The position numbers and the translations under genes were made by a program. Positions 35,026 to 39,189 of a stretch of DNA of 64,000 bases are shown piece after piece. Position 1 is the stretch's first letter, and each line of letters begins with the position of its first letter. The stretch comes from Bradyrhizobium sp. B124 (lineage in GTDB: Bacteria > Pseudomonadota > Alphaproteobacteria > Rhizobiales > Xanthobacteraceae). Location of the stretch: positions 2,852,001-2,916,000 of the forward strand of contig NZ_CP152413.1 in the NCBI RefSeq assembly GCF_038967635.1, given 5' to 3'. The notes beneath the pieces are model-generated. The model did no database searches and was not told where the DNA came from. It saw only the letters and a list, made by a program, of their open reading frames with translations.

Positions 35026-38000
35026 TCAGGCATGTTGCGGCGGGGCAAGGGTGGCGACCTGATCAGCATGCACCGTGATGGCCGTGCCGCCATGTCCATC
35101 GCTCGCGGCGACGAAGGTGGATGCCATGTAGTTTCCGAGCAAGGCGATGCTGGCGGCGTGGACGCCGTCCGAAACCGAGAGCGATCCGCCTGCGGTGTTG
35201 CCGGCAAAGCCCACGGTTTGCCCAGCCGCAAAACTGATATTGGCGAAATCGATCGCGTCGGCTCCCGTCATGCCGGCGACGGTGCCGGAGAAGTCGGCGG
35301 GATCGTCGAGCTTCAGTGTCCCGGAGCCTGATGCGAAGGAGATTTGCGCCGAGCTCGGGGACGCAAGCTCGAGGGTCTGTCCGGCTGGAATGATCGGGGG
35401 ATCACTGATCTTGAAGGCGCTGGACCAGGCGCCCCAGACGGTCCCGTCATTGGCCTTGATCCAGAGCGTGTCCGTGTCAGACCCGACGTGATACGCAAGC
35501 TGGGAGAGCTGCGAGGCCGCGACGACGTTGTCCTGATTTGCTCCGAGCGCAACACCGTTCAGCGTGAAGTAGCCGTTGCCGCCTCCGCTATTCCAGACAT
35601 CATATGATGTCGCGGAACTGCCGAACGGATCCGAATAGGTGAAGAGCGAGGACACCGAGAACGTCTGGCCTTGAACGGACAGCGTGCTCGAATTGGTCGG
35701 GGTCACCACCGGACCCGTGTCCACCGGCGCAGTCACGGTGAAAGCACTTGACCATGATCCCCAGACGGTGCCGTCGTTCGCGCGGACCCACAGCGTGTCC
35801 GCGCCCGAGCCGGATTGATAGCTCAGCGACGCCAGCTGGGCCGCGGTGAGGTAATTGTCCTGGTTGGGCGCAAGTGCCACCCCGCTCAAAGCAAAATGCC
35901 CGCCACCTGTGCCGGTGTCCCAGACGTCATATTGGGTCGCGGCGCTGTTGAACGGATCGCTGTAGGTGAACAGCGACGAGACCGCATAGCTCTGACCGTG
36001 AGCCGCAACGATGCTCGACACCGCTTCAACGGGCCCGCTGTCAAGGGGAGCATTGACGGTGAAGGCGCTCGACCACGCCCCCCACAGCGTGCCGTCATTG
36101 GCCCGGATCCAGAGCGTGTCGGTCCCCGAGCCGGATTGATAGGTCAATGACGACAGCTGCGCGGCCGTGACGTAATTGTCCTGATTGGCCGACAGCGCCG
36201 ACCCGTTCAGAAGGAAGCGTCCGCCGCCTGTGCCCGTATCCCAGACGTCGTATTGGGTCGCAGCGCTGTTGAACGGATCGCTGTAGGTGAACAGCGACGA
36301 GGCAGCATAGCTCTGGCCGTGGGTCGCAATGATGTTCGACACCGTCTCAACGGGTCCGCTGTCGAGGGGAGCATTGACGGCGAACGCGTTCGACCACGCG
36401 CCCCACACAGTGCCGTCATTGGCGCGGATCCAAAGCGTGTCGATGCCGGACCCGGATTGATAGGTCAATGACGACAGCTGCGCGGCCGTGATGTAATTGT
36501 CCTGGTTGGCGGGCAGCGCCACGCCGTTCAGGAGGAAGTGGCCGCCGACGGTGCCGCTATCCCAGACATCGTACACGGTCGCAGCGCTGTTGAACGGATC
36601 GCTGTAGGTGAACAGCGACGAAGCCGCATAGCTCTGGCCATGCGCCGCGACGATGTTCGACACCGTCTCAACGGGCCCGGTGTCAACCGGCGCATTGACG
36701 GTGAAGGGGCTCGACCACGCTCCCCACACGGTGCCGTCATTGGCGCGGATCCAGAGGGTGTCGATGCCGGAGCCCGATTGATAGCTCAACGAGGCCAGTT
36801 GCGCGGGCGTGATGTAGTTGTCCTGGTTGGCGGGAAGCGCCACCCCGTTCAGAACGAAGTGTCCGCCACCGGTTCCCTTGTCCCAGACGTCATATTGCGT
36901 TGCAGGATTGTTGAACGGATCGCTGTAGGTGAACAAGGACGAGGCCGCATAGCTCTGGCCATGCGCCGCGACAATGTTCGACACCGCCTCGACGGGACCG
37001 GTGTCGACCGGCGCCGTGACAGTGAAGGCGTTCGACCACTGTCCCCACACCGTGCTGTCGTTGGCCCGGATCCAGAGCGTGTCCGCGCCGGAGCCGGATT
37101 GATAGGTCAATGACGACAGCTGCGCGGCCGTGATGTAGTTGTCCTGATTGGCGGCAAGCGCCACCCCGTTCAGAACGAAGTGGCCGCCACCGGTGCCGCT
37201 GTCCCAGACATCGTATTGGGAGGCCGCGAGGCCGAACGGATCGTAATAGGTGAACAGCGAGGACACGGCAAAGCTCTGGCCGTGCGCTGCCGTCATGTTT
37301 ACGCCCGTCACCACGGGCCCTTCAGGGGTTGCCGTAAATTCGGTCCAGGCGCTCCAGAATACGCCGTTGAACGCCTCCACCCACAGCTGGTCGCTCCCGG
37401 GACCGAACTGATAGGCAATGCTGGACCACTGTGAGGCAGCGACGTCGATCTCGACCCCGTTCGCCTGCGCCACCCCGCCCACAGTGAAGTGGCCGTTACC
37501 GGTGGAGTCCCAAAGCGCATATTCGATGATGGGCAGAGTACCGCCCGTCGTATAGAACATGGACGACGCTGCAATCGAGGTTTGCACGCGGCCGGTTATG
37601 TTTGACGCGACCACCGTGGGCGCGACGTCGACGGCGCCGGAATTGTCGATGACGAAGTCGCCGCCCTCACTGGCGATCTGTGTCAGCGAAACCTCAAATT
37701 GCACATCCCAGTTCTGGCCGGGATAGCTGTTTCCCCATGGATTACGAACGATGAAATTGCCCGTCGCGCTGTCATAGCCGACGATCCCGAACGCGTGATC
37801 CGGGACCAACTGGATGTTTCCGGCACTGTCATACGTGTACGGCGACGTTGAAGGAATCTCGAGGGTGACGTCGTCGTGGCTGGAGAGTGCCGCGATATAG
37901 ACGGACTTGTTGCTGTACCAATTGGACGCGCTGCTCAGATAATAGTTGACGCTCGTCGCGTCGGTCAGATTCTCGAAGACATTCGTCGGGGGATCAGCGG

Positions 38001-38799
38001 AGATATTGTTGTAGCTGTTGACGGCCGGGTGCCCGATCTGCCCCGTTGCGCTGAGCTGCGCGTAGGCCTTTTCCACCACGGCAACCCACATCGCAGTGGG
38101 TTGCTCATTGTAGTTGTGGCCATAGTCAAGTTCGGTGCCACTGACGACCGGAAACTCGTCATTGACGGTTTCCCATGTCTCCTGACCATTGACATAGAAG
38201 CGCACGCCATAGGTGCCGTTTCCATTGTCCACGATCATGGAACTCATGACCTGAGGATGAAAGACGACGACGTCGATCAATCCCGACATCAACTCGCAAT
38301 CGCCGTCTGCGCCCTGACAAATGTCGTTGACGGTGGCCGCGCCCGCCGAAGAATACAACGGCCCGACAACCGCGCTGTAGCCCTGCAATGTCCAGCCGCT
38401 CCCGCCTGCATCGGGCGGCAAAGTCGGATCCGGAAGATCGGTCCCCTGAAACCACTTTCCGATCAGTTCAGACATCTGCGTCGACGTCGTGCCAACCTGC
38501 AGATTGCCGAGCGTGATGTGAGCAGTGCCGCCCCCTGTCCAGGTGGCGTTCGCCGGATTCCCATCTACGAGCTGGACGAAGAGATGGGAGACATAGTCCG
38601 ATGTGTAGAGGCCGCTGTTCAGATTGGCCGCAATCAGCTGCAGCGAGTTCAGCTCATTCGCGGTGACACTCCCGCGATTGGCGACATCCGCCAGCAACTG
38701 GATGGCTTCCGCGTCGGTGAAAACGCCGTCCGCAGCAAAGTTGAGCATGTCGGACTTGATGCCGCTGTCGACCAGGGAATTGACCCAGCTTGCCGTCAT
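35026..38799 (-). CDS. Calpain-like cysteine protease with seven ~107-residue repeats, probably secreted
   Basis: 1257 residues. Residues ~125-385 form a calpain (C2)-like domain: catalytic Cys168 in DICQGADGDCELMSGL, His335 in PDHAFGIVGYD and Asn353 in RNPWGNSYPGQNWD, the order and spacing of the Cys-His-Asn triad. Residues ~392-1140 are seven repeats of ~107 residues (SSLFTYSDPF, YDVWD, HFxLNGVAL, DTLWIRANDGTVWG blocks), the first and last divergent. The end (LLGNY...ASDGHGGT) resembles C-terminal modules of large rhizobial proteins that may be type I secreted. No Sec signal is seen. The start at 38799 follows GAAGGAATTCC. No secretion genes or inhibitor lie nearby. The target is unknown. 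Confidence 0.85.
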   Translation of the reverse strand: MTASWVNSLVDSGIKSDMLNFAADGVFTDAEAIQLLADVANRGSVTANELNSLQLIAANLNSGLYTSDYVSHLFVQLVDGNPANATWTGGGTAHITLGNLQVGTTSTQMSELIGKWFQGTDLPDPTLPPDAGGSGWTLQGYSAVVGPLYSSAGAATVNDICQGADGDCELMSGLIDVVVFHPQVMSSMIVDNGNGTYGVRFYVNGQETWETVNDEFPVVSGTELDYGHNYNEQPTAMWVAVVEKAYAQLSATGQIGHPAVNSYNNISADPPTNVFENLTDATSVNYYLSSASNWYSNKSVYIAALSSHDDVTLEIPSTSPYTYDSAGNIQLVPDHAFGIVGYDSATGNFIVRNPWGNSYPGQNWDVQFEVSLTQIASEGGDFVIDNSGAVDVAPTVVASNITGRVQTSIAASSMFYTTGGTLPIIEYALWDSTGNGHFTVGGVAQANGVEIDVAASQWSSIAYQFGPGSDQLWVEAFNGVFWSAWTEFTATPEGPVVTGVNMTAAHGQSFAVSSLFTYYDPFGLAASQYDVWDSGTGGGHFVLNGVALAANQDNYITAAQLSSLTYQSGSGADTLWIRANDSTVWGQWSNAFTVTAPVDTGPVEAVSNIVAAHGQSYAASSLFTYSDPFNNPATQYDVWDKGTGGGHFVLNGVALPANQDNYITPAQLASLSYQSGSGIDTLWIRANDGTVWGAWSSPFTVNAPVDTGPVETVSNIVAAHGQSYAASSLFTYSDPFNSAATVYDVWDSGTVGGHFLLNGVALPANQDNYITAAQLSSLTYQSGSGIDTLWIRANDGTVWGAWSNAFAVNAPLDSGPVETVSNIIATHGQSYAASSLFTYSDPFNSAATQYDVWDTGTGGGRFLLNGSALSANQDNYVTAAQLSSLTYQSGSGTDTLWIRANDGTLWGAWSSAFTVNAPLDSGPVEAVSSIVAAHGQSYAVSSLFTYSDPFNSAATQYDVWDTGTGGGHFALSGVALAPNQDNYLTAAQLASLSYQSGSGADTLWVRANDGTVWGSWSSAFTVTAPVDTGPVVTPTNSSTLSVQGQTFSVSSLFTYSDPFGSSATSYDVWNSGGGNGYFTLNGVALGANQDNVVAASQLSQLAYHVGSDTDTLWIKANDGTVWGAWSSAFKISDPPIIPAGQTLELASPSSAQISFASGSGTLKLDDPADFSGTVAGMTGADAIDFANISFAAGQTVGFAGNTAGGSLSVSDGVHAASIALLGNYMASTFVAASDGHGGTAITVHADQVATLAPPQHA
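35396..37626 (-). repeat. Seven-unit tandem coding repeat, 321-base period
   Basis: Units of 321 bases (107 codons). Units 2 to 6 are close to identical in protein and DNA; unit 1 (nearest the protease) and unit 7 (nearest the C-terminus) have diverged. The gradient suggests recent unequal recombination in the middle of the array. Assemblies may miscount units. Confidence 0.88.
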
Positions 38800-39189
38800 G
38801 GAATTCCTTCGCAAATCTTGACGCGATGCGATTGCTGTCGGCCAGGCCTGTCCTGCCGAGGTTGCGCGCGTTCCGTCGCGACGAATCCAGCAATAGATTG
38901 CGTAACTATCGCCATAGTTGTGAACGAATTCGGGACCCGTGTCGATCTTGCCGACCGCGGCCAAAAGCCAAAGCAGCCCGCATGATCGTGAAGATTCGTT
39001 AACGTCTGCCTGATGCGCGGCCCGCCACCCGGGATCGAGGCGGGGTTTGGCCCCGACCGCAGCGCCGGGTCCCCAGGGAAGCCGAACCTGGTCCGGGTTC
39101 CCTGCAGCGCATCAGCCGCGCCGCCGTCCCTTCGATGCCCCGGCTCGCGCGGCATAAAGGCAGGGCTGAGCGCCGCCGGCCCGCTCGCA
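38800..39189. other. 390-base gap between protease and IclR genes
   Basis: No gene recognised. A perfect AACTAT-CGCC-ATAGTT palindrome (38904-38919) lies ~105 bases before the protease start and may be a regulator site. The part from 39000 to 39189 is GC-rich and featureless. Confidence 0.4.

What the first reader, a model, noticed from the sequence alone, without database searches (positions are those of the whole stretch)
35026..38799. Calpain-like protease fused to seven near-identical repeats
Cys168, His335 and Asn353 stand in the calpain C2 order (GADGDC, DHAF, RNPWG). They precede five near-identical and two divergent ~107-residue repeats, then a C-terminus like those of large rhizobial proteins. 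Bacterial calpain-like domains are known but little studied, and the repeat fusion suggests an extracellular or surface-bound protease. No Sec signal, secretion genes or inhibitor are nearby. A role in secretion or host contact is inference.
Basis: partly seen in the sequence, partly recalled or inferred. Interest (0 to 1): 0.75.

Follow-up and report, generated by a model that had tools for sequence, protein, structure and literature searches.

The report
Secreted calpain-like protease of Bradyrhizobium
This soil-bacterium gene encodes a relative of calpain, a protease best known from inside animal cells, built into a long repeat protein that looks exported by the type I secretion route, so it probably works outside the cell.

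Summary

New here is the export route. The C-terminal module occurs on six other large proteins of the same genome, two of them beside type I secretion (T1SS) exporter and adaptor genes. In 31 genomes of the genus, 17 of 46 module copies lie within 20 kb of a listed HlyD gene, about 1 expected. In 7 of 17 family loci outside Bradyrhizobium, and 2 of 2 fetched loci of a second Bradyrhizobium lineage, the calpain gene itself lies near HlyB/PrtD and HlyD genes. The window has no secretion genes, but the family reads as T1SS-exported extracellular calpains.

The calpain calcium site 1 is degraded. Proteolysis, export and host role are untested. It is a new variant of the known bacterial C2 peptidases. 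Plant contact is not shown: nodA co-occurrence is weak and uncorrected for kinship.

The parts
35026..38799 (-). Whole coding sequence, 1257 aa calpain-like exoprotein
38805..38810 (-). GAAGGA, ribosome-binding-like sequence 5 nt before the ATG
   Evidence: read
38446..38799 (-). N-terminal helical domain (residues 1-118), conserved in the family; model pLDDT 93.9; no clear match among solved structures
37630..38424 (-). Calpain-like catalytic domain (about residues 126-390)
38314..38316 (-). Codon of Gln162, oxyanion-hole position of calpains (role recalled)
38296..38298 (-). Codon of catalytic Cys168
37795..37797 (-). Codon of His335
37741..37743 (-). Codon of Asn353
37336..37641 (-). Repeat unit 1 (divergent, residues 387-488), predicted beta-sandwich
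37015..37335 (-). Repeat unit 2 (residues 489-595)
36694..37014 (-). Repeat unit 3 (residues 596-702)
36373..36693 (-). Repeat unit 4 (residues 703-809)
36052..36372 (-). Repeat unit 5 (residues 810-916)
35731..36051 (-). Repeat unit 6 (residues 917-1023)
35404..35724 (-). Repeat unit 7 (divergent, residues 1026-1132)
35029..35403 (-). C-terminal module (residues 1133-1257), shared with T1SS-linked giant proteins; proposed type I export signal

Best explanation
This is an extracellular cysteine peptidase of the calpain (C2) fold, exported unfolded and C-terminus first by a type I secretion system encoded elsewhere in the chromosome. The last 125 residues carry the uncleaved export signal. The seven beta-sandwich repeats form a stalk between export signal and enzyme, and may bind the cell surface or exopolysaccharide. 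The N-terminal helical domain precedes the catalytic domain and may act as folding aid or pro-domain. Outside the cell the domain folds and Cys168-His335-Asn353, with Gln162, cleaves protein substrates, probably without the two-site calcium switch of animal calpains. Shown by computation: domain order, fold match, residue conservation, module sharing, T1SS linkage. Inferred: export, activity, roles of the N-terminal domain and repeats, substrates.
For: Pfam and fold. Active-site residues kept in 82-85 of 85 aligned homologues. C-terminal module on six other proteins of this genome at E below 1e-17, at the C-terminus in five and about 83 residues before it in the sixth; one beside PrtD+HlyD, one in a cluster with HlyB+HlyD, all four over NCBIfam cutoffs. 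The 2291-aa protein of that cluster ends QPQHA, the calpain PPQHA. In 31 genomes 17 of 46 module copies lie within 20 kb of a listed HlyD gene, 1.14 expected. Calpain genes within 4 kb of T1SS genes in 7 of 17 non-Bradyrhizobium family loci; the ABC and HlyD genes of the four loci tested with NCBIfam (L089, L095, L097, L100) all pass the cutoffs. HlyB and HlyD downstream in 2 of 2 fetched second-lineage Bradyrhizobium loci. Only 2 Cys in 1257 aa, one catalytic; 105 Asp+Glu against 18 Lys+Arg. 44 of 98 homologues carry DUF4214 and 6 carry RTX repeats (counted by eye; that DUF4214 goes with T1SS substrates is recalled).
Against: No T1SS gene in the window or near the 13 Bradyrhizobium loci of this lineage, so the exporter is not identified. 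29 of 46 module copies are not within 20 kb of a listed HlyD gene (12 of those 29 lie on contigs with no listed HlyD gene). 10 of 17 non-Bradyrhizobium family loci show no T1SS pair (at least L088, L090 and L099 have short flanks). No RTX nonapeptides in the protein. The module's signal function is by association only. The T1SS-adjacent calpain genes fall in few lineages (four of seven loci are Aquitalea; in one, L103, the HlyD match is split over two frames).
Confidence: 0.75

Rival explanations
1. An exported but catalytically idle calpain fold: the domain serves binding or structure, and the triad is kept for fold reasons.
For: Three homologues (P0073, P0075, P0077) have Gly in place of the catalytic Cys and one (P0044) Thr for Asn. 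A calcium-site residue that activates animal calpains is lost.
Against: Cys 82, His 85, Asn 84, Gln 84 of 85, and the catalytic Cys is one of only two Cys in 1257 residues.
Confidence: 0.12
2. A symbiosis or plant-contact factor whose targets are plant apoplast or nodule proteins.
For: 13 of the 16 genomes with the close orthologue have a strong nodA match (E below 1e-60) against 108 of all 195 (counted), two-sided Fisher p 0.036.
Against: No correction for kinship, and the fetched orthologues form one syntenic group. Three orthologue carriers lack a strong nodA; nodA lies at 8.07 Mb, the calpain at 2.89 Mb. Family members also occur in Rugamonas and Aquitalea.
Confidence: 0.2
3. A cytosolic peptidase, or one exported by another route, carrying adhesin-like repeats by recombination.
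For: No T1SS gene next to the gene in this lineage.
Against: Shared C-terminal module and tail with T1SS-linked proteins; calpain genes near T1SS genes in relatives; no Sec-like N-terminus or membrane-like segment by hydropathy.
Confidence: 0.07
4. An interbacterial polymorphic toxin, as proposed for the WXG-fused calpains (reviewer comment in PMC4631099, passage).
For: Large repeat protein with an enzyme domain.
Against: The enzyme is N-terminal, not at the tip after the repeats; the neighbouring genes on both sides that were scanned are metabolism, transport and regulation. Immunity genes were not searched for.
Confidence: 0.04

Closest known systems
Bacterial calpain homologues, peptidase family C2 (Rawlings 2015, PMC4631099; abstract, sections 9 and 14 and passages read)
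   Same: Pfam Peptidase_C2, Cys-His-Asn order, patchy distribution, varied domain partners, calcium sites mostly lost; extracellular action suggested there for the Gloeobacter protein through its HemolysinCaBind domains; one N-terminal peptidase domain (Granulibacter) is noted there.
   Different: That paper reports HemolysinCaBind domains in one homologue only, N-terminal to the enzyme. Here the enzyme comes first, repeats and a non-RTX module follow, and T1SS genes lie near the calpain gene in relatives.
PrsDE type I substrates of Rhizobium leguminosarum (PMC2275737; section 9 and passages read)
   Same: Large repeat or enzyme proteins without signal peptides; two of them share only their last 150 residues.
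   Different: Those named are glycanases, adhesins, cadherin-like proteins and a predicted metalloprotease; 'calpain' has 0 hits in that text, and our module was not compared with their shared C-terminus.
Animal calpains (CAPN1, CAPN2, CAPN3, CAPN9)
   Different: No EF-hand or calpain beta-sandwich domain found by Pfam; calcium-site-1 glutamate replaced by Ala236; 18-25% identity in the best structural alignments.

Membership tests
Peptidase family C2 (calpain) | Match to the family profile above its curated cutoff | tested here: met
   58.9 bits against 23.8, residues 154-361
Peptidase family C2 (calpain) | Gln-Cys-His-Asn active site in that order | tested here: met
   Q162, C168, H335, N353, aligned to CAPN2 and CAPN8
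Peptidase family C2 (calpain) | Calpain core fold | tested here: met
Peptidase family C2 (calpain) | Peptidase activity | not testable with these tools
   Needs an assay with a C168A control
Classical calcium-activated calpain | Calcium site 1 (Asp96 and Glu175 of rat CAPN2, residues from PMC4631099) | tested here: not met
   Asp159 kept in 84 of 85; the Glu position, two before the Trp of W-x-x-x-x-EKAYA, read by eye off the alignments (chain numbers there are one lower), is Ala236 here, Glu in 7 and Asp in 6 of 85 homologues
Classical calcium-activated calpain | Calcium site 2 | tested here: inconclusive
   The alignments to CAPN2 end just after the RNPWG motif, so the site's positions were not reached; columns 357-367 vary in the family
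Classical calcium-activated calpain | C-terminal EF-hand domain | tested here: not met
   Only PF00648 found by Pfam at E up to 1
Type I secretion substrate | No Sec signal, uncleaved C-terminal export region | tested here: inconclusive
   No hydrophobic N-terminus; C-terminal module shared with T1SS-linked proteins; signal function not assayed
Type I secretion substrate | Gene linkage to ABC exporter and HlyD adaptor (common, not obligatory) | tested here: inconclusive
   Absent in the window; present in 7 of 17 non-Bradyrhizobium family loci and 2 of 2 fetched second-lineage loci
RTX proteins | Glycine-aspartate nonapeptide repeats | tested here: not met
   No PF00353 match in the protein at E up to 1

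The most novel reading that the evidence does not exclude
A whole family of calpains, marked by one N-terminal helical domain without a recognised structural relative, is exported by type I secretion in Alpha-, Beta- and possibly other proteobacteria. It swaps its C-terminal stalk and signal (DUF4214, He_PIG, FG-GAP, RTX, the module seen here) while keeping the enzyme, has given up the calcium switch, and includes natural Cys-to-Gly pseudo-enzymes. The N-terminal domain would be the export-compatible pro-domain or folding aid that replaces calcium control.
Probability: 0.4. Interest if true: 0.75.

Novelty: new variant of a known kind. Interest (0 to 1): 0.56.

Why it matters
Calpains are mostly treated as intracellular, calcium-switched proteases. 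A bacterial family with the same core, exported by type I secretion and with a degraded calcium site, would show an extracellular way of using this fold and give compact, testable systems (enzyme gene plus exporter genes) for asking how a calpain is kept quiet until export. For rhizobia it adds a candidate secreted protease to an exoproteome known mostly for adhesins and glycanases.

Tried and rejected

Intact calcium site 1: at first I took Glu243 (in VVEKAYA) for the calcium ligand, as my notebook entry still says. Counting against the numbering in PMC4631099 put the ligand at Ala236, so that claim was dropped.

Recent expansion of the repeats: rejected, since dS between units 2-6 is 0.42-1.16 with dN 0.06-0.19. 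Copy number does vary: 11 of 14 orthologues have 7 units, two have 6, one has 8.

Symbiosis link through nodA: weak. L091, which first looked like a T1SS neighbour, scores below every T1SS cutoff and best with glucan and lipid exporters, so it is not counted.

Literature: searches for bacterial calpain, calpain with Bradyrhizobium, with type I secretion or DUF4214, with Tpr of P. gingivalis and calcium, with rhizobia, secreted protease and nodule, 'calpain-like' with T1SS (0 papers) and calpain with HlyD and secretion signal listed no title or abstract start on T1SS-exported calpains. Only listings were seen except for four papers opened: PMC4631099 (outline, passages, sections 9 and 14), PMC2275737 (passages, section 9), PMC3034196 and PMC9380684 (passages). 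The library lacks most subscription papers.

Full report
The gene. The frame runs on the minus strand from ATG 38799 to a stop ending at 35026, 1257 residues, in a single-contig genome of 9,169,800 bases. GAAGGA stands five bases before the ATG. Six neighbouring genes were scanned: a transporter permease and an ABC ATPase, a ketopantoate reductase, an IclR regulator, a periplasmic binding protein and a Rieske oxygenase. No T1SS-size exporter or adaptor is in the window.

Calcium. Rawlings (PMC4631099; passages and sections read) lists the rat CAPN2 ligands of site 1 as Ile89, Gly91, Asp96, Glu175 and says that only some bacterial homologues keep site 1. Asp96 corresponds to Asp159, kept in 84 of 85. 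Glu175 is the residue two before the Trp of the W-x-x-x-x-EKAYA motif; here it is Ala236, Glu in 7 and Asp in 6 of 85 homologues (mapping read by eye). Site 2 was not reached by the alignments. The classical two-site switch is therefore unlikely, though calcium could still act elsewhere.

The C-terminal module and export. The last 124 residues match six other proteins of the genome at E below 1e-17, and three more places weakly within three of those same proteins' frames. Five of the six carry it at their C-terminus; the sixth, an EglC-like glycanase relative, about 83 residues before its end. A frame of at least 4084 residues with an RTX match is followed by PrtD (701.6 bits, cutoff 510) and HlyD (364 bits, cutoff 209). 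A 2291-residue protein lies in a cluster with HlyD (407 bits), HlyB (1024.5 bits, cutoff 726) and a TIGR04414 heptosyltransferase. Across 31 genomes of the genus, 24 have the module (46 copies at E 1e-10 or better). Of these 46, 6, 11 and 17 lie within 5, 10 and 20 kb of a listed TIGR01843 match, against 0.31, 0.59 and 1.14 expected from the number of such genes per genome. The list of HlyD matches was cut at 150 of 156, and the genomes are related, so the tail probabilities printed there are not to be taken literally. The calpain's own module copy is far from any listed HlyD match (1.58 Mb).

Calpain genes near exporters. A genome scan with the family alignment gave 34 loci. The 13 Bradyrhizobium loci of this lineage (L074-L086) have no T1SS pair within the stored flanks. 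Of the 17 other loci with the family's calpain domain (L087-L103), seven have both a full-length T1SS ABC gene and an HlyD match: Siculibacillus (L089), a Rhizobiales MAG (L095), a Xanthobacteraceae MAG (L097) and four Aquitalea (L100-L103; in L103 HlyD is split over two frames). L089, L095, L097 and L100 were checked with NCBIfam; all pass the TIGR01846 or TIGR01842 and the TIGR01843 cutoffs. In L095 and L097 the exporter frame begins about 140 bases after the calpain frame on the same strand; in L089 it is 3.6 kb downstream; in Aquitalea the two are convergent, about 1.5 kb apart. The other ten show no such pair, some with flanks cut by contig ends. L104-L107 are distant and gave no hit. A second calpain lineage, about 41% identical, found in 3 of 195 genomes, has HlyB and HlyD downstream in the two regions I fetched (L072, L073); the third was not fetched.

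Composition. Two Cys in 1257 residues (161 and 168), 105 Asp+Glu, 18 Lys+Arg, no 12-residue window in the first 51 residues above hydropathy 1.11. Five of the six module-bearing proteins of the genome have no Cys at all. This fits what is recalled of T1SS substrates.

Distribution. 19 of 195 sampled genomes of the genus have a match; 16 have the close orthologue (90% or more, one in two frames) and 3 the second lineage. Of the 15 orthologues besides this one, 14 regions were fetched; all 14 keep the ketopantoate reductase and transporter ATPase beside it, and 5 also keep the IclR and binding-protein genes on the other side. The gene is thus a stable chromosomal resident of a subgroup.

Function. 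In Rhizobium leguminosarum, PrsDE exports several proteins without signal peptides, and two of them share only their last 150 residues (PMC2275737, section 9 and passages). By analogy the calpain is exported by one of the genome's own T1SS. What it cleaves is unknown. nodA co-occurs (13 of 16 against 108 of 195, Fisher p 0.036) but the carriers are related, so this is weak.

Verdict. A known enzyme family in an unusual place: a new variant of the bacterial calpains, with the first-reader reading supported and its missing secretion link supplied from the rest of the genome and from relatives.

Noticed in passing
P0073, P0075, P0077 (proteins): Three DUF4214-type homologues have Gly in place of the catalytic Cys (GDGEL for GDCEL), natural pseudo-enzyme candidates.
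   Followed up: partly
L072, L073: A second, shorter Bradyrhizobium calpain lineage (about 590-residue frame, no repeats of this type) lies upstream of HlyB and HlyD genes.
   Followed up: partly
L025 3967-16708 (genome 4.456-4.469 Mb): A T1SS gene cluster with a 2291-residue protein (weak AIDA strand-loop-strand match) and an autotransporter-type heptosyltransferase (TIGR04414), suggesting a glycosylated T1SS substrate.
   Followed up: no
L024 2-15667 (genome start): A frame of over 4000 residues with an RTX match, Cys-free over the 4084 residues counted, followed by PrtD and HlyD; it is still open at the first bases of the contig.
   Followed up: no
L071, L086 (L086 is Bradyrhizobium viridifuturi): The calpain gene is split over several frames near the start of the catalytic domain and near the C-terminus; assembly error or decay not decided.
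   Followed up: no
P0048: One homologue carries an RsaA N-terminal domain (PF19198), a part of the Caulobacter S-layer protein family.
   Followed up: no
window 38446-38799: The conserved N-terminal helical domain has a confident model but no clear match among solved structures.
   Followed up: yes
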